DNA of 64,000 bases from Terriglobus albidus (GTDB lineage: Bacteria; Acidobacteriota; Terriglobia; Terriglobales; Acidobacteriaceae). Made by a program: the position numbers and the translations under genes. Below are positions 32,179 through 40,032 of this stretch, one piece after another (the first letter of the stretch is position 1; each line of letters begins with the position of its first letter). The stretch spans positions 1,116,001 through 1,180,000 of the forward strand of contig NZ_CP042806.1 of the NCBI RefSeq assembly GCF_008000815.1, read 5' to 3'. The notes below the pieces were generated by a model. That model saw nothing but the letters and a program-made list of their open reading frames with translations, searched no databases and was not told where the DNA came from.

Positions 32179-32934
32179 CTAAGTCCGAAGCTCGGCCAGA
32201 TTCGACCGCAGCTTTCGGGTAGCACGGAAGAGCGTATTCTTTGCTGTCTCTTCCGTGGTATTCAACATCTCTCCGATCGTCCGGAGCTTCAAACCCTGGT
32301 AATGCTTCAACTCAAAAACCATGCGCTCGCGGGGCGTCAGCTTGGTCAGCGCGGCCATAATCCGCTCGCCCATATCCTTGCGCTCCAACTCACGTGCCGG
32401 GTTCGCCATCGCGCGTTCGTCGGAGACATTCGCCATCAGGTCCATCTCCTCCCCGGCGGCATCCAGCACCGTTGCCGGATCTTCCCGGCGGCTCTTCCGC
32501 CGGCGCAAAGCGTCCAGGCAGAGATTCGTCGCGATGCGGTACAGCCAGGTGTAGAACGAGCTGTCGAAGCGGAAATTGTGGATATGCCGGTAGGCCTTCA
32601 AAAACGCCTCCTGATGCACATCCTGCGCATCCTGCTCGTTCCCAAGCATATGCAACGCCAGCCGCAACACCGCCTGGTCGTACCGGCGAACCAGCTGATC
32701 GAAGCTGGCGCGGTCACCCCTCTGCGCTGCCCGAATCAGGTCGTCGTCTTCAGCGCGTTGCTGCGCGCGGGCATCCATCTGGGCCTGCGTCAGCCGACCG
32801 CTATTCCGTGCCGCCCGGGTTGCAGCCGCTTTTGCCATGGCTGCGGATGATTCTACCCGGCGGAGCCCAATACTGGCTCCCATACCGCTTCCCATCGGAG
32901 AAACGACGTTTGCACCCAACACTTCAGTTCGCAT
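32179..32934 (-). CDS. ECF RNA polymerase sigma factor
   Basis: A 251-residue extracytoplasmic function sigma factor. Region 2 is seen at LIRAAQRGDRASFDQLVRRY, EQDAQDVHQEAFLKAYRHI and FYTWLYRIATNLCLDALRR; region 4 at LTPRERMVFELKHYQGLKL and NTTEETAKNTLFRATRKLR. The N-terminal 50 residues before region 2 are a longer than usual Ala-rich tail. Its partner, the anti-sigma factor with HEAT repeats, is directly downstream. The 477 bases upstream carry a palindrome at 32941 and a Fur-box-like sequence at 33053, so control by itself and by iron is possible. Confidence 0.92.
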   Translation of the reverse strand: MRTEVLGANVVSPMGSGMGASIGLRRVESSAAMAKAAATRAARNSGRLTQAQMDARAQQRAEDDDLIRAAQRGDRASFDQLVRRYDQAVLRLALHMLGNEQDAQDVHQEAFLKAYRHIHNFRFDSSFYTWLYRIATNLCLDALRRRKSRREDPATVLDAAGEEMDLMANVSDERAMANPARELERKDMGERIMAALTKLTPRERMVFELKHYQGLKLRTIGEMLNTTEETAKNTLFRATRKLRSNLAELRT

Positions 32935-32956: not shown

Positions 32957-33052
32957 GAAATCAATCTCATTCAGATAGACCGTGGTGTGCGGGAAACGTA
33001 AGCAGAGGAGCGAACGGATGGGCGATCACAGGACGAGATGAGGCTTAGATCG

Positions 33053-33069
33053 TTGATAACGATTATCAA
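33053..33069. promoter_or_regulatory. Fur-box-like palindrome
   Basis: TTGATAACGATTATCAA is palindromic (7-bp arms around CGA). Its core TGATAACGATTATCA differs from the 7-1-7 Fur consensus at a single base. It lies 119 bases upstream of the sigma factor start, on the correct side for that promoter, and there is no other gene start nearby. Confidence 0.5.
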
Positions 33070-33089
33070 ATTCATCTGGGCTTCAAGGG

Positions 33090-33327
33090 GAAAACCGTAC
33101 CTCAGCGGCTGAAGCCGCTTATCTTCCGGCTTTGATTCGGCACGGCTGAAAGCCGTGCCCTTAAGCAAAACGTAGCGCCTTCGGCGCTTTATCCAAGTCC
33201 TCTTTGCCTGTCTGCCTGCAAGTGCGCCACTGAGCCACGACCGCGTAAGCCGGTCCGCACCGGCAGGTGCGGATGTCTTGCTTAAGGACACGGCTTCAGC
33301 CGTGTCGTAGGGGAGGCGAAAGGTAGG
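33090..33327. repeat. REP cluster upstream of IS copy 1
   Basis: Contains CCTCAGCGGCTGAAGCCGC, CACGGCTGAAAGCCGTG followed by CCCTTAAGC, GCGCCTTCGGCGC, and CTTAAGGACACGGCTTCAGCCGTG. These are palindromes with a shared GCTTAAGGG head. The insertion sequence at 33328 starts in the next palindrome of the series. No gene is seen. Confidence 0.82.
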
Positions 33328-33411
33328 CGGCTTCAGATGGGATGAGACGGCTGGCCTCGCGAAGCAGCTAAGCTGTTCGCACGCACTCGGGGTGCTCAAG
33401 GAGACCAGCCG

Positions 33412-34500
33412 ATGAAGAAGGTTAGCAAAGCGCAGTGGTTAGAGGAAATGGGGAGTGACAGGCCAGCGCTGACGGTAGGGCTTGATTTAGGGGACCGTTA
33501 CAGCCACTACTGTCTGTTGAACGCAGGGAAGGAAGTGATGGAGGAAGGTCGTATCCAGAGTACGGAGGCGGCGTTCCGACGTCATTTCGAGGGCGAGGAG
33601 CGGCAGCGAATAGCACTGGAGTGCGGCACGCACTCTCCGTGGGTAAGCCGTTTGCTCAAGTCTTTAGGTCATCAGGTGATCGTGGCCAATGCGCGCAAGA
33701 TCGCGGCGATCAGCTCGAGTGAATCGAAGAACGATCGCAACGATGCCGAGCAGCTGGCTCGCTTCGCGGCGTCTGATCCTAAGTTGCTGGCGCCGCTGCT
33801 TCACCGCAGCATGGAGCGGCAGCAGGACCTGAACCTGATCCAGGCGCGGGCTACGCTAGTACGTGCGCGGACGATGCTGGTCAACGCGTTGCGTGGCCTG
33901 GTCAAAAGCGCCGGTGGCCGTCTGCCGGCCTGTTCCACCGAGTCGTTTCCTGTGCGGGTGCGGGCATCGATTCCGTCTGTGCTGACGACGGTAGCGGTTC
34001 CGTTGTTGGAGCAGATCGCGACGTTGAACCGTCAGATCGACAGTATGGAAGAACAGATCGAAAAGCTGGGTACCAGGTATCCGGAGATCGGTGTGCTGCG
34101 TACGGTTCCAGGCGTGGGTCCTGTGGTGGCGGCCACGTATGTACTCACGCTGGACCGGCCCAATATAGCAAGCAACCGTTCCGCAGGTGCGTGGCTCGGT
34201 CTGCGACCCGGACAAAGTCAGTCGGGGGACTCGGATCCGGAGTTAGGCATCTCCAAGACCGGCAACCGATATTTACGAAGTCTGCTGGTGCAGTCGGCGC
34301 AATACATCCTGGGTCGCTTCGGTCCTGACTCAGCCTTGCGTCGCTGGGGCCTCAAGCTGGCATCCAGTGGAGGCAAGAGAGCAAAAAAGCGAGCTATCGT
34401 GGCGGTGGCCCGTAAACTGGCGGTCCTGTTGCACAGCATGTGGCGCAGCGGACAGAGCTTCCAACACTTCCCTCAACCTGCAATGGCCACCGTAGCCTGA
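33412..34500 (+). CDS. IS110-family transposase, copy 1
   Basis: A 362-residue DEDD transposase. The N-terminal RuvC-like domain starts ALTVGLDLGDRYSHYCLL (the first Asp near residue 25) and includes NDRNDAEQLARF; a central helical region follows; the C-terminal Tnp_20 domain has LRTVPGVGPVVAATYVLTLD, GAWLGLRPGQSQSGDSD and GISKTGNRYLRSLLVQSAQY with the catalytic Ser region. It is full length and intact, so probably active. It differs from copy 2 at only two residues, Glu11 (Lys in copy 2) and Gly39 (Ala in copy 2). The start is ATG 33412 after AAGGAGACC. The enzyme should use an RNA guide from the element's long end. Confidence 0.95.
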   Translation: MKKVSKAQWLEEMGSDRPALTVGLDLGDRYSHYCLLNAGKEVMEEGRIQSTEAAFRRHFEGEERQRIALECGTHSPWVSRLLKSLGHQVIVANARKIAAISSSESKNDRNDAEQLARFAASDPKLLAPLLHRSMERQQDLNLIQARATLVRARTMLVNALRGLVKSAGGRLPACSTESFPVRVRASIPSVLTTVAVPLLEQIATLNRQIDSMEEQIEKLGTRYPEIGVLRTVPGVGPVVAATYVLTLDRPNIASNRSAGAWLGLRPGQSQSGDSDPELGISKTGNRYLRSLLVQSAQYILGRFGPDSALRRWGLKLASSGGKRAKKRAIVAVARKLAVLLHSMWRSGQSFQHFPQPAMATVA

Positions 34501-34732
34501 ACCGCGGATCGGCCAAAGCAGAACAATCTCGTGTCCGGGTGACTGCGCTCAGCGGCTGGGCCATACAGGTCGTGCTTCAGATAGCAGCCCCAATTCATCA
34601 CCATCGGGTCCCAACAGGCACCGAGTCCCTTAGCGGCTCACTGCGAGTGCGGATAGAAGCCCCGAGATGAATCCAAAACACAACCGCAACTGCAAATACA
34701 AAAACTCTATGAAGGAAAAAACTTGACCCATA
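34501..34732 (+). ncRNA. candidate bridge RNA region of IS copy 1
   Basis: The 232 bases between the transposase stop and the right subterminal repeat have no open frame but carry several short stems. They hold CTCAGCGGCT at 34548-34557 and CTTAGCGGCT at 34630-34639, both matching the REP target CCTCAGCGGCTTC, and GCTTCAGAT at 34574-34582, matching the left element junction at 33330-33338. IS1111-type elements encode their bridge RNA at this end. The RNA's exact ends and fold are not determined. Confidence 0.55.
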
Positions 34733-34808
34733 CAGCCGTCTCATAGAAGCCGCTGAGGTACGGTACGATACACACGTTGCCGACCCATCTTAGGTGCCAG
34801 AACGAGAA

Positions 34809-34868: not shown

Positions 34869-37103
34869 CTACGAAGCCATCAGCTCCGTACGCATCTTGC
34901 TATCGAGATGCCGCATCATCTCCGGCACTTCTTCCGCTGGAACCGGCTTCGAGAAGAGATAGCCCTGCCCGTATCCGCACTCAATACGGATGAGCTGCGT
35001 CAGCTGCTCCATGTTCTCGATACCCTCGGCGAGCACACGCATCCCCAGCGCCTTTCCCAGAGCCACAATCGATCGTGGAAGGCTCAAACTCTCTTCCGTC
35101 TGGTCGATGCGCTGCACGAATGAGCGATCCACCTTCAGGGCATCGAAGGGGAAGCGGTGGAGATAGCTCAGCGAGGAGTAGCCGGTGCCGAAATCGTCCA
35201 TATCGATACCAATACCCAGCGCCTTGATCTCGCGGAAGAACTCGCCGGTGGTGGTATCGCTATTGATCAGAAGGCTCTCCGTCACTTCCAGCCGCAGGCT
35301 ATGCGGCGGAAGTCCGCTCTCCTGCAACTGATCGCGAATGAAGCCCACCAGGCCCTTATCACCAATCTGCCGTCCGGAGATATTGACGGCGACGTTCATC
35401 TCATCGGTCAGGATTCCATCCCTGCGCCACTGCTCCGCCTGCCGGATCGCCTGCCGCAGCGTGAGCATGCCAAGATCGCGGATCAGGCCCGTCTCCTCGG
35501 CCACGGGAATAAACTCCGCCGGCGAGATCATCTCTCCATCGGGATGCTTCCAGCGCACCAGCGCCTCAAAGCCAATCACTTGCCCGCTACGCAATGCCAC
35601 CTTCGGCTGGTAGTAGAGGACAATCTCGTCACGCTCCAGCGCCCTCCGCAGATCCAGCTCCAGCTGCACCCGTTTTGCCGCATCCTCGCGCATGTGCGGA
35701 GCAAAGGCCACGTGGGCCGAGCGGCCGGAGTTCTTGGCGTGATACATGGCAAGATCGGCGTTCTCCAGCATGCTCTGCGCATCGCGCACCAAGGCATCCG
35801 CGGTAGCAATTCCGATACTGGCCGAGAGGAAGAGTGTCTGTTCCCGGCTCATCACCGGAGCCTGCAGCATCTCCTGCAATCGCTGCACGTAGGCAGCAAT
35901 GTCCTCCTCGCCGGGAGCATGCGCCAGCAGAATGGCGAACTCATCACTGCTGAGACGCGCCGCACAGCTATGCGGCCGGTCCGCAAGACTCTTACGGATA
36001 CGCGCTGCAATCTCAAGCAGCACGATATCGCCCTCTGCATGCCCCAGGCTGTCATTGATGCGCTTGAAGTGATCGATGTCGACATAGATCACGGCATACA
36101 TCTCGTCCTCGCTGGAAGACTTGTCGATGCGGCTCTGGATTCGGTCAATGAACGATGCCCGGTTATGAAGATGGGTCAGCGGATCCATGGCACGGATGCG
36201 GTTACGGTCGCTCAACGCACCCACCATGCGTTGCGGCTCACCGGCCGCGCCACTCAACAGCAGCCCGCTACACTCGACCCAGCGCCACTCACCATCGCCG
36301 TGCAGATAACGGAACTCGCAGCTAAAGTTCTGCTGGCCGTGCAACGCGTGTGCGATCTCTTCATGAATCCGCTTACGGTCGCCCCGATGGATATGCCGGT
36401 AGCATCCGCGCAGGCTGGTAATACGTTCCTGCCCGCCATAACCAAGCAGCGCGCTGCAGCGGGCTGAGAGATAGATCTGACCGGAGCGGAGATCCCAGTC
36501 CCAGATACCGTCGGAGGTCGCGCTGGTAGCCAGCCGGTAACGTTCGCTGGCGAGATCGATCTGTTGCTTCGCCTGTTCAAGCTGCAATGCAGTGGTGCGC
36601 TGGTCGATCAGATAGGAAGCTGCACTGGCCAGGTGGCGCAATAGCTCCGTCTCCCGCTCATTCAGCGTGCGCGGCTCGCGGTCGATGATGCAGAAGCTGC
36701 CGAGCCGTATGCCGTTGGGCGTGATGATGGGAGAGCTGGCATAGAAGCGGACATACGGCTCTTCCACCACAAAGGGATTGGTCGCGAAGCGAGGATCAAG
36801 ACGCGCATCGGGAATGATAGTCTCGCCTTCCGTCAGCAGCGAGTGCGCACAGAAGGAGAGATCGCGCGGCGTCTCGCGGATAGGAGTTCCCTGGACCGAC
36901 TTGAAGAACTGGCGATCCTTATCGACCAGTGAGATCAATGCGATAGGGACAGCAAAGATCTTGACCGCCATCGCTGTCAGCTGGTCAAAAGCCGGCTCGG
37001 AGGGCGTGTCCATGATGCAGAGGCTACGCAAGACTGCAAGACGTTCATCCTCGTTCGGGGGAAGCGCAGCCGGTACTGCTCCGGTAGGGGGATGCGTTAC
37101 CAT
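34869..37103 (-). CDS. GAF-PAS-GGDEF-EAL protein, probable c-di-GMP phosphodiesterase
   Basis: A 744-residue cytoplasmic signalling protein. In order: GAF domain about 25-165 (FAVPIALISLVDKDRQFFKS, FYASSPIITPNGIRLGSFCI), PAS domain about 190-305 (SDGIWDWDLRSGQIYLS, HGDGEWRWVECSG), GGDEF domain about 310-470 and EAL domain about 480-735. The GGDEF signature is degenerate, RLSSDEFAIL, so cyclase activity is unlikely. The EAL motifs are intact: GFEALVRWKHPDG, LEVTESLLI, IDMDDFGTGYSSLSYL, LKVDRSFV and LAEGIEN. I therefore expect it to break down c-di-GMP, opposing the cyclase at 21.7 kb. An ATG at 37115 is an alternative start. It is bracketed by the two insertion sequences. Confidence 0.93.
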   Translation of the reverse strand: MVTHPPTGAVPAALPPNEDERLAVLRSLCIMDTPSEPAFDQLTAMAVKIFAVPIALISLVDKDRQFFKSVQGTPIRETPRDLSFCAHSLLTEGETIIPDARLDPRFATNPFVVEEPYVRFYASSPIITPNGIRLGSFCIIDREPRTLNERETELLRHLASAASYLIDQRTTALQLEQAKQQIDLASERYRLATSATSDGIWDWDLRSGQIYLSARCSALLGYGGQERITSLRGCYRHIHRGDRKRIHEEIAHALHGQQNFSCEFRYLHGDGEWRWVECSGLLLSGAAGEPQRMVGALSDRNRIRAMDPLTHLHNRASFIDRIQSRIDKSSSEDEMYAVIYVDIDHFKRINDSLGHAEGDIVLLEIAARIRKSLADRPHSCAARLSSDEFAILLAHAPGEEDIAAYVQRLQEMLQAPVMSREQTLFLSASIGIATADALVRDAQSMLENADLAMYHAKNSGRSAHVAFAPHMREDAAKRVQLELDLRRALERDEIVLYYQPKVALRSGQVIGFEALVRWKHPDGEMISPAEFIPVAEETGLIRDLGMLTLRQAIRQAEQWRRDGILTDEMNVAVNISGRQIGDKGLVGFIRDQLQESGLPPHSLRLEVTESLLINSDTTTGEFFREIKALGIGIDMDDFGTGYSSLSYLHRFPFDALKVDRSFVQRIDQTEESLSLPRSIVALGKALGMRVLAEGIENMEQLTQLIRIECGYGQGYLFSKPVPAEEVPEMMRHLDSKMRTELMAS

Positions 37104-37260
37104 ACAGCTCCACATTCGTCAGAGTCCGACACGAAAAGCGGGCCCGCTCGGTAACCTGCAAGGTACATCGTTCCCCCTGGATTGTCCATGTAGTTTCGTA
37201 CAAGTGCCCTCGAGGAAACAGTCGGCTTCTGTTTTTTTGCACCCACGGTAACATGACTGC

Positions 37261-38550: not shown

Positions 38551-38627
38551 GCCACAATGCTGAACGATTGAGGTTCGACCATACTGGACACGGAACATTG
38601 CCCTCAGCGGCTTCTATGAGACGGCTG

Positions 38628-38859
38628 TATGGGTCAAGTTTTTTCCTTCATAGAGTTTTTGTATTTGCAGTTGCGGTTGTGTTTTGGATTCATCTCGGGG
38701 CTTCTATCCGCACTCGCAGTGAGCCGCTAAGGGACTCGGTGCCTGTTGGGACCCGATGGTGATGAATTGGGGCTGCTATCTGAAGCACGACCTGTATGGC
38801 CCAGCCGCTGAGCGCAGTCACCCGGACACGAGATTGTTCTGCTTTGGCCGATCCGCGGT
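38628..38859 (-). ncRNA. candidate bridge RNA region of IS copy 2
   Basis: Equivalent of the copy 1 region, between the transposase stop and the right subterminal repeat. The same target-like strings are present (rev-comp of CTCAGCGGCT at 38803-38812). The 309-base gap 38551-38859 holds only the element end. Confidence 0.55.
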
Positions 38860-39948
38860 TCAGGCTACGGTGGCCATTGCAGGTTGAGGGAAGTGTTGGA
38901 AGCTCTGTCCGCTGCGCCACATGCTGTGCAACAGGACCGCCAGTTTACGGGCCACCGCCACGATAGCTCGCTTTTTTGCTCTCTTGCCTCCACTGGATGC
39001 CAGCTTGAGGCCCCAGCGACGCAAGGCTGAGTCAGGACCGAAGCGACCCAGGATGTATTGCGCCGACTGCACCAGCAGACTTCGTAAATATCGGTTGCCG
39101 GTCTTGGAGATGCCTAACTCCGGATCCGAGTCCCCCGACTGACTTTGTCCGGGTCGCAGACCGAGCCACGCACCTGCGGAACGGTTGCTTGCTATATTGG
39201 GCCGGTCCAGCGTGAGTACATACGTGGCCGCCACCACAGGACCCACGCCTGGAACCGTACGCAGCACACCGATCTCCGGATACCTGGTACCCAGCTTTTC
39301 GATCTGTTCTTCCATACTGTCGATCTGACGGTTCAACGTCGCGATCTGCTCCAACAACGGAACCGCTACCGTCGTCAGCACAGACGGAATCGATGCCCGC
39401 ACCCGCACAGGAAACGACTCGGTGGAACAGGCCGGCAGACGGCCACCGGCGCTTTTGACCAGGCCACGCAACGCGTTGACCAGCATCGTCCGCGCACGTA
39501 CTAGCGTAGCCCGCGCCTGGATCAGGTTCAGGTCCTGCTGCCGCTCCATGCTGCGGTGAAGCAGCGGCGCCAGCAACTTAGGATCAGACGCCGCGAAGCG
39601 AGCCAGCTGCTCGGCATCGTTGCGATCGTTCTTCGATTCACTCGAGCTGATCGCCGCGATCTTGCGCGCATTGGCCACGATCACCTGATGACCTAAAGAC
39701 TTGAGCAAACGGCTTACCCACGGAGAGTGCGTGCCGCACTCCAGTGCTATTCGCTGCCGCTCCTCGCCCTCGAAATGACGTCGGAACGCCGCCTCCGTAC
39801 TCTGGATACGACCTTCCTCCATCACTTCCTTCGCTGCGTTCAACAGACAGTAGTGGCTGTAACGGTCCCCTAAATCAAGCCCTACCGTCAGCGCTGGCCT
39901 GTCACTCCCCATTTCCTTTAACCACTGCGCTTTGCTAACCTTCTTCAT
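38860..39948 (-). CDS. IS110-family transposase, copy 2
   Basis: A 362-residue transposase identical to copy 1 except Lys11 for Glu and Ala39 for Gly, each from a single base change. Both changes lie in the N-terminal RuvC-like half and leave the DEDD residues and the C-terminal GISKTGNRYLRSLLVQSAQ motif intact. The start is ATG 39948. Which of the two variants is ancestral cannot be told here. Confidence 0.95.
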   Translation of the reverse strand: MKKVSKAQWLKEMGSDRPALTVGLDLGDRYSHYCLLNAAKEVMEEGRIQSTEAAFRRHFEGEERQRIALECGTHSPWVSRLLKSLGHQVIVANARKIAAISSSESKNDRNDAEQLARFAASDPKLLAPLLHRSMERQQDLNLIQARATLVRARTMLVNALRGLVKSAGGRLPACSTESFPVRVRASIPSVLTTVAVPLLEQIATLNRQIDSMEEQIEKLGTRYPEIGVLRTVPGVGPVVAATYVLTLDRPNIASNRSAGAWLGLRPGQSQSGDSDPELGISKTGNRYLRSLLVQSAQYILGRFGPDSALRRWGLKLASSGGKRAKKRAIVAVARKLAVLLHSMWRSGQSFQHFPQPAMATVA

Positions 39949-40032
39949 CGGCTGGTCTCCTTGAGCACCCCGAGTGCGTGCGAACAGCTTAGCTGCTTCG
40001 CGAGGCCAGCCGTCTCATCCCATCTGAAGCCG

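What the first reader, a model, noticed from the sequence alone, without database searches (positions are those of the whole stretch)
34501..34758. IS110-family element with a candidate bridge RNA that matches its REP target
The element has an IS1111-like layout: short 5' end, transposase, long 3' non-coding end. Its subterminal inverted repeats ATGAGACGGCTG/CAGCCGTCTCAT lie just inside its ends. Its outer bases are halves of the palindrome CCTCAGCGGC...GAAGCCG found elsewhere in the window as REP units. The 232-base 3' segment carries CTCAGCGGCT (34548) and CTTAGCGGCT (34630), matching the target, and GCTTCAGAT (34574), matching the left junction. IS110-type elements are known to use an RNA with separate target and donor loops to pair with both sites. 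If this one does, it is a programmable recombinase whose guide is directed at an abundant extragenic palindrome, so it has many harmless landing sites.
Basis: partly seen in the sequence, partly recalled or inferred. Interest (0 to 1): 0.75.

Follow-up and report, generated by a model that had tools for sequence, protein, structure and literature searches.

The report
RNA-guided jumping gene targeting REP palindromes
A small jumping gene in a bacterium of the Acidobacteriota appears to carry a guide RNA that matches both the common palindromic repeat it inserts into and its own end, which makes it a well-supported new example of a recently described class of RNA-guided recombinases.

Summary
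The element spans 33335-34747: DEDD transposase gene (33412-34500), perfect 12-bp subterminal inverted repeats, 7-bp and 3-bp outer extensions, long 3' non-coding region. The genome holds seven near-identical copies, two in this window. All seven sit in one orientation, without duplication, at GCGGCTT(C/T)|AGCCGCTGAGG, a REP palindrome that also has 136 exact empty copies. The non-coding region encodes a probable two-loop bridge RNA (seekRNA): target guides 34548-34557 and 34574-34580; donor guides 34653-34659 (strong) and 34610-34616 (weak). The best evidence is comparative: over 58 elements, guides match their own targets better than in any of 20,000 permutations, and the strong donor guide copies the element's own right end plus core in 53 of 58. 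A model from 18 relatives found the RNA in 68 of 75 other loci and, in the home genome, only in the seven copies. REP-targeting, RNA-guided IS1111 elements are published (ISPa11), so this is a new member of a known kind. No transcript or transposition was measured.

The parts
33335..33341 (+). 7-bp left extension AGATGGG (first two bases = core AG)
   Evidence: sequence; 7/3-bp rule of PMC11187229; identical in 7 of 7 copies
33342..33353 (+). left subterminal inverted repeat ATGAGACGGCTG
   Evidence: I7, 100% complementary
33412..34500 (+). IS110/IS1111-type transposase (recombinase) gene, 362 aa
   Evidence: Pfam DEDD_Tnp_IS110 5.9e-15 and Transposase_20 4.5e-18; D25, E70, D108, D111, S271, G272 invariant in 11 sequences
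34535..34674 (+). bridge RNA (seekRNA) region, covariance-model match
   Evidence: model R1, 101.9 bits (this element was in the training set); 68 of 75 loci outside the training set also match
34537..34591 (+). target loop: closing stem 34537-34546 / 34584-34591 with hairpin 34559-34572 between the guides
   Evidence: RNAalifold on 25 relatives; placed on the window
34548..34557 (+). right-target guide CUCAGCGGCU, complement of AGCCGCTGAG
34574..34580 (+). left-target guide GCUUCAG (left target half plus core AG)
34593..34672 (+). donor half: basal stem 34593-34608 / 34661-34672, apical stem 34618-34621 / 34647-34650, hairpin 34623-34639
   Evidence: swap test of the basal stem, RNAalifold for the apical stem, window placement; the hairpin by eye
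34610..34616 (+). weak candidate donor guide CCCAACA against the left extension
   Evidence: by eye; exact 6-mers mostly absent
34653..34659 (+). donor guide AUAGAAG = AT + right extension AGA + core AG
   Evidence: 7-mer in own NCR in 53 of 58 elements
34723..34728 (+). TTGACC, candidate -35 box of a circle-junction promoter
   Evidence: TTGANN upstream of the junction in 56 of 58
34733..34744 (+). right subterminal inverted repeat CAGCCGTCTCAT
34745..34747 (+). 3-bp right extension AGA
   Evidence: sequence; identical in 7 of 7 copies
33327..33334 (+). left half of the interrupted REP target, GCGGCTTC
34748..34758 (+). right half of the interrupted REP target, AGCCGCTGAGG
33100..33118 (-). 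uninterrupted REP unit of the same type near the element
38613..40025 (-). second copy of the element in the window
   Evidence: (L004)

Best explanation
An IS1111-type insertion sequence, recently active, that moves by RNA-guided recombination. The region 3' of the transposase gene encodes a bridge RNA (seekRNA) with two loops. In the 5' loop CUCAGCGGCU pairs with the top strand of the right half of a REP palindrome and GCUUCAG with the bottom strand of the left half, the two overlapping at the AG core. In the 3' loop AUAGAAG pairs with the element's own right end plus core, and CCCAACA perhaps with the left extension. The recombinase bound to this RNA excises the element as a circle, whose joined ends form a promoter for gene and RNA, and inserts it into REP sites in one orientation without duplicating bases. 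Shown here by sequence: anatomy, copies, sites, guide/target and guide/donor agreement, conserved RNA segment. Inferred from published relatives: RNA production, circle formation, promoter activity, catalysis.
For: 7 of 7 copies in one orientation at one REP site, without duplication. 136 exact empty sites, 0 in reversed-pattern controls. Right and left guides fit their own targets better than in any of 20,000 permutations over 58 elements and over the 57 that could be anchored. Donor 7-mer in 53 of 58, changing with the element's end. Donor basal stem stronger within elements than swapped between them, 51 elements. RNA model found in 68 of 75 loci outside the training set and in the home genome only in the 7 copies. 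Guide order (right-target complement before left-target match) as reported for IS1111 in PMC11187229.
Against: No transcript or transposition measured. Single-sequence fold not better than shuffles, and the unconstrained fold of the window RNA (-55.3) beats the drawn model (-37.1 as drawn, -49.2 with extra pairs allowed, some of them on guide bases). Covariation term small, -0.59 kcal/mol. The weak donor guide is not found by exact search. Some relatives fit poorly (for example L124 and L137 for the right guide); 5 of 58 lack the donor 7-mer; 5 of the 73 loci of this transposase group gave no RNA match.
Confidence: 0.92

Rival explanations
1. The transposase itself recognises the REP palindrome as protein on DNA, and the target-like stretches in the non-coding region are chance or remnants of past target capture.
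For: REP palindromes could be read as structured DNA; 7 copies of one element in one kind of site do not by themselves separate RNA from protein recognition.
Against: In 58 relatives with many different targets the guide stretches at fixed places in the non-coding region change with the target; the IS1111 elements tested in PMC11187229 need the RNA.
Confidence: 0.04
2. It is a dead or degraded element; the non-coding region is only a remnant.
For: No activity measured; all copies lie within 0.3-1.52 Mb of a 6.4-Mb genome, so some could reflect old local spread.
Against: Intact gene in 7 of 7 copies, at most two substitutions and one 6-bp duplication between copies, each at a different REP copy.
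Confidence: 0.03
3. The non-coding RNA regulates transposase expression and does not guide it.
For: ISPpu9, also inserted in REPs, has two small RNAs that regulate its transposase (PMC8450116; only the listing and start of abstract seen).
Against: The variable segments are those that follow target and donor DNA, which regulation does not predict. Both roles could coexist.
Confidence: 0.01

Closest known systems
ISPa11 (IS1111 family, targets Pseudomonas aeruginosa REPs) and its seekRNA: PMC11187229; also among the six elements drawn in PMC11208160
   Same: 3' non-coding RNA, subterminal inverted repeats, REP target, right-target complement placed before left-target match.
   Different: Different host phylum, REP sequence and guides.
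ISEc11, ISKpn4, ISPst6 (IS1111 family with demonstrated seekRNAs, PMC11187229)
   Same: Layout, 7/3-bp extensions, guide order; reprogramming was shown for ISEc11.
   Different: They target a linear site or attC sites, not REPs.
IS621 and ISCro4 (IS110 group; IS621 bridge RNA in PMC11208160; solved structures matched)
   Same: Related recombinase, matched over the C-terminal part only; target loop plus donor loop; IS621 also targets REPs.
   Different: IS110 group has its RNA 5' of the gene, the reverse guide order and no long subterminal repeats (PMC11187229, PMC11208160).

Membership tests
IS1111 family (as described in PMC11187229) | Subterminal inverted repeats, usually 11-13 bp | tested here: met
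   12 bp, perfect
IS1111 family (as described in PMC11187229) | Extensions of 7 bp left and 3 bp right | tested here: met
   AGATGGG and AGA; the halves outside them rejoin to an intact REP
IS1111 family (as described in PMC11187229) | Longer non-coding region downstream of tnp | tested here: met
   247 bp after the gene (232 before the right repeat) against 77 bp before it
IS1111 family (as described in PMC11187229) | DEDD transposase with GL-P----S(t)G motif | tested here: met
   D25, E70, D108, D111 invariant; GLRPGQSQSG in the protein; Pfam
IS1111 family (as described in PMC11187229) | Transposase length 330-350 aa | tested here: inconclusive
   362 aa from the first ATG, slightly longer; 10-11 residues at the start are missing from most relatives' matches; true start unknown
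IS1111 family (as described in PMC11187229) | One site type, one orientation, no duplication | tested here: met
   7 of 7 copies
IS1111 family (as described in PMC11187229) | seekRNA with top-strand complement before bottom-strand match | tested here: met
   order and match by sequence; the RNA itself not detected
IS1111 family (as described in PMC11187229) | Circular intermediate with a junction promoter | not testable with these tools
   TTGANN at the expected place in 56 of 58; no circle measured
Bridge RNA (PMC11208160) | Loop pairing with the target | tested here: met
   sequence agreement over 58 elements
Bridge RNA (PMC11208160) | Loop pairing with the donor (joined ends) | tested here: met
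   one donor guide met in 53 of 58; the other weak
Bridge RNA (PMC11208160) | Match to a published covariance model | not testable with these tools
   no such family reached threshold in Rfam 15; the paper's models are not held
REP with RAYT (target) | Abundant palindrome found around Y1 (RAYT-type) transposase genes | tested here: met
   136 exact copies; of 7 Y1_Tnp hits, 2 lie between inverted copies and 1 has a copy within 90 bp, the other 4 have none within 1 kb in the lists (by eye); that these genes are RAYTs was not tested further

The most novel reading that the evidence does not exclude
The guide reads sub-variants of the host's REP population. Six of seven insertions are in the rarer C-type REP that the left guide matches fully, one in the T type, and none in the 19 listed sites with another stem base; a relative (L062, 72% identical, right end missing) carries guides for a GGGG-stem variant. 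The lineage would thus follow, by a few guide bases, which transposase-dispersed repeats are available as landing sites, and in this group of IS1111 elements the RNA would read the donor end as well as the target.
Probability: 0.4. Interest if true: 0.55.

Novelty: new member of a known kind. Interest (0 to 1): 0.42.

Why it matters
It extends RNA-guided IS1111 recombination to a REP palindrome of the Acidobacteriota with strong comparative support. The relatives give a readable code (two target guides, and a donor guide that copies the right extension plus core) that could help to annotate such elements, correct their ends and choose natural orthologues for programmable insertion. The donor-guide agreement bears on how IS1111 ends are recognised, which PMC11187229 says may differ from IS110.

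Tried and rejected
Flipped-transposase layout: rejected. At I took some relatives to have the gene inverted between the ends (notes). One search showed that loci of minus-strand hits from the genome search are not turned round; the 'flipped' set was exactly the minus hits (correction). The guide matches were made in the end-oriented frame and stand.

CTTAGCGGCT (34629) as a second target guide: rejected, because relatives have a hairpin there without the match (by eye). Rfam: five hits, all below the curated thresholds. Single-sequence folding: uninformative. REP sites as intergenic: ORFs of 119-168 aa from a start codon span 3 of 7 rejoined sites (L001 134, L004 165 and 168, L005 119); not followed up, so I claim 'between long ORFs' only for the window copy, which lies between ORFs at 32179-32934 and 34869-37115 (a 142-aa ORF at 32971-33399 overlaps the left end and the 134-aa frame spans the rejoined site). 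C/T REP preference: p = 2.7e-4 over the genome, 0.078 within 0-1.7 Mb where all copies lie, so suggestive only. Phylum search with A1 at E 1e-90: 9 of 297 genomes, not used further. Literature: the searches listed no paper on an IS1111 guide RNA in Acidobacteria; the library lacks most subscription journals. No structure prediction or fold search was run.

Full report
What is there. The element runs from 33335 to 34747. From left to right: 7-bp extension AGATGGG, 12-bp subterminal repeat, 58 bp, a 362-codon transposase gene (33412-34500), 232 bases of non-coding DNA, the second repeat, and AGA. The protein matches Pfam DEDD_Tnp_IS110 and Transposase_20. A profile of it and ten relatives matches two solved proteins, the IS621 and ISCro4 transposases, over the C-terminal part. 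In the alignment of 11, D25, E70, D108, D111, S271 and G272 are invariant.

Copies and sites. The home genome (6.4 Mb, one contig) has seven full copies at 99-100% identity. They differ by two substitutions and one 6-bp GCAACT duplication. All seven are inserted in the same orientation at GCGGCTT(C/T)|AGCCGCTGAGG with no duplicated bases, six at C and one at T. Exact empty 15-base sites: 23 of the C type, 113 of the T type, 19 with another stem base; the reversed-pattern controls gave 0 in all three. Of seven Y1_Tnp hits in the genome, two lie between inverted copies of this palindrome and a third has one within 90 bp; the other four have none within 1 kb (read by eye). So the target is very probably a REP of the RAYT kind. 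Two copies of the IS lie in this window (33335-34747 plus, 38613-40025 minus). The host is placed in the Acidobacteriota by inference: one genome of its family (G106) has a contig of the same length and hit as a named Granulicella record.

Target guides. In the window element CTCAGCGGCT (34548) is the exact complement of the ten bases right of the insertion point, and GCTTCAG (34574) repeats the left half plus the AG core. A script looked for paired repeats in 109 of the loci then held. 58 elements, the window's included, were kept: those with ATGAG/CTCAT ends and at least 12 bases of flank. Eight repeats of the same locus and 43 loci without such ends or flank were dropped before counting. 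Boundaries were set without looking at guides. The longest match of each right target to its own non-coding region summed to 450, against 322 +/- 7.9 with permuted targets (maximum 357 of 20,000); left target 360 against 305 +/- 6.8 (maximum 335); opposite strand 309 and 283. Anchored on the constant ACTGCG and GCAG motifs (57 of 58), the right guide reached 8/10 in 27 of 57 against 26 of 3192 swapped pairs, and the left guide 6/8 in 46 of 57 against 313 of 3192; sums 386 against 249 +/- 8 and 358 against 231 +/- 8, no permutation of 20,000 reaching either. The anchored window penalises elements with a 9-nt right guide, so that figure is a low estimate; some elements (L124, L137) fit poorly all the same. 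Relatives share descent, and permutation treats them as exchangeable.

Donor guides. A 7-mer made of AT, the element's own 3-nt right extension and the 2-nt core occurs in its own non-coding region in 53 of 58. It changes with the end: ATAGAAA 12/12 own and 0/46 others, ATACAAA 5/5 and 1/53, ATAGAAG 3/3 and 0/55, ATAGAAC 1/1 and 1/57, ATGGAAG 32/32 and 5/26. The five failures are the three elements with a GG core, L121 and L123. A second donor guide (CCCAACA, 34610) precedes a mostly constant GCACCGAG. Its first bases follow the left extension in several relatives (CTTAA for AGTTAAG, CTCAT for one AGATGAG), by eye only; an exact 6-mer search mostly fails, so it is a weak call.

Structure. RNAalifold on 25 relatives gives a stem GGGUGACUGC/GCAGCCCC around the target guides, a hairpin between them and a GCACC-type stem in the donor half; 6 of 17 pairs show two-sided changes, but the covariation term is small (-0.59). 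The donor basal stem was tested by swapping halves between 51 of 53 elements (two had no anchor): -682.7 kcal/mol own, -587 +/- 19 swapped, best of 20,000 -665; by eye the anchor was misplaced in at least seven of the 51, which were left in. In the drawn model all four guides of the window element are unpaired (-37.1 kcal/mol); allowing extra pairs gives -49.2, some on guide bases; the free minimum is -55.3. The drawn structure therefore rests on relatives. A covariance model from 18 relatives, the window's element among them (15 pairs, so largely sequence-driven), matched 68 of 75 loci outside the training set; the seven misses are L058 and L059, two distant IS110-type elements of the home genome, and L077, L112, L133, L135 and L141. 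In the home genome it matched only the seven copies (150 of 1166 first-look candidates scored).

Expression. A TTGANN hexamer lies 19-31 bases before the circle junction in 56 of 58 elements, at 25 or 26 in 43, which would place a promoter across the joined ends; such promoters are reported for relatives (PMC11187229). The -10 side is a poor match to the consensus (GAAGAT against TATAAT, recalled).

Against what is known. PMC11187229 (parts 1-3 of 9 and passages) defines IS1111 by features met here, shows seekRNAs for four IS1111 elements including the REP-targeting ISPa11, and shows reprogramming for ISEc11. PMC11208160 (passages) predicts bridge RNAs in 93.0% of the ISfinder IS1111 elements and draws donor pairing for six elements, ISPa11 among them; IS621 targets REPs too. 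So the kind is known and so is REP targeting. PMC1525189 (title and start of abstract only) reported REPs as IS targets in 2006. What is added is this lineage, its REP, and a natural guide/target and guide/donor comparison over 58 elements.

Open point. The left guide predicts a preference for C-type REPs: occupied/empty is 6/23 for C and 1/113 for T (Fisher p 2.7e-4), but within 0-1.7 Mb, which holds all copies, 6/7 and 1/10 (p 0.078). L062, a 72% relative whose right end is missing, carries CCCAGGGGCT and GCTTCAG beside a left flank GGGGCTTC, which suggests retargeting between REP variants; its right target is not available to check.

Noticed in passing
38613-40025 (minus strand): A second, near-identical copy of the element in the same window, inserted in another REP of the C type.
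   Followed up: yes
G000:C1 2051017, 2264923, 3982822, 4750379, 6143480, 6199432: Six copies of a second, distant IS110-type transposase (31-32% identical) in the home genome; two of them, fetched as L058 and L059, do not match the RNA model.
   Followed up: partly
about 34686; L006 and L007: Two of the seven copies carry a 6-bp GCAACT duplication between the guide RNA and the right repeat.
   Followed up: no
33094-33110 and 34748-34764: The occupied REP and the empty REP next to it are an inverted pair sharing 17 identical bases, a paired-REP arrangement.
   Followed up: no
G000:C1 5.2-6.0 Mb: Most listed T-type REP copies (90 of the 100 listed, of 113) lie beyond 4.7 Mb, nearly all at 5.2-6.0 Mb and often as close inverted pairs, while all seven IS copies lie at 0.3-1.52 Mb.
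   Followed up: no
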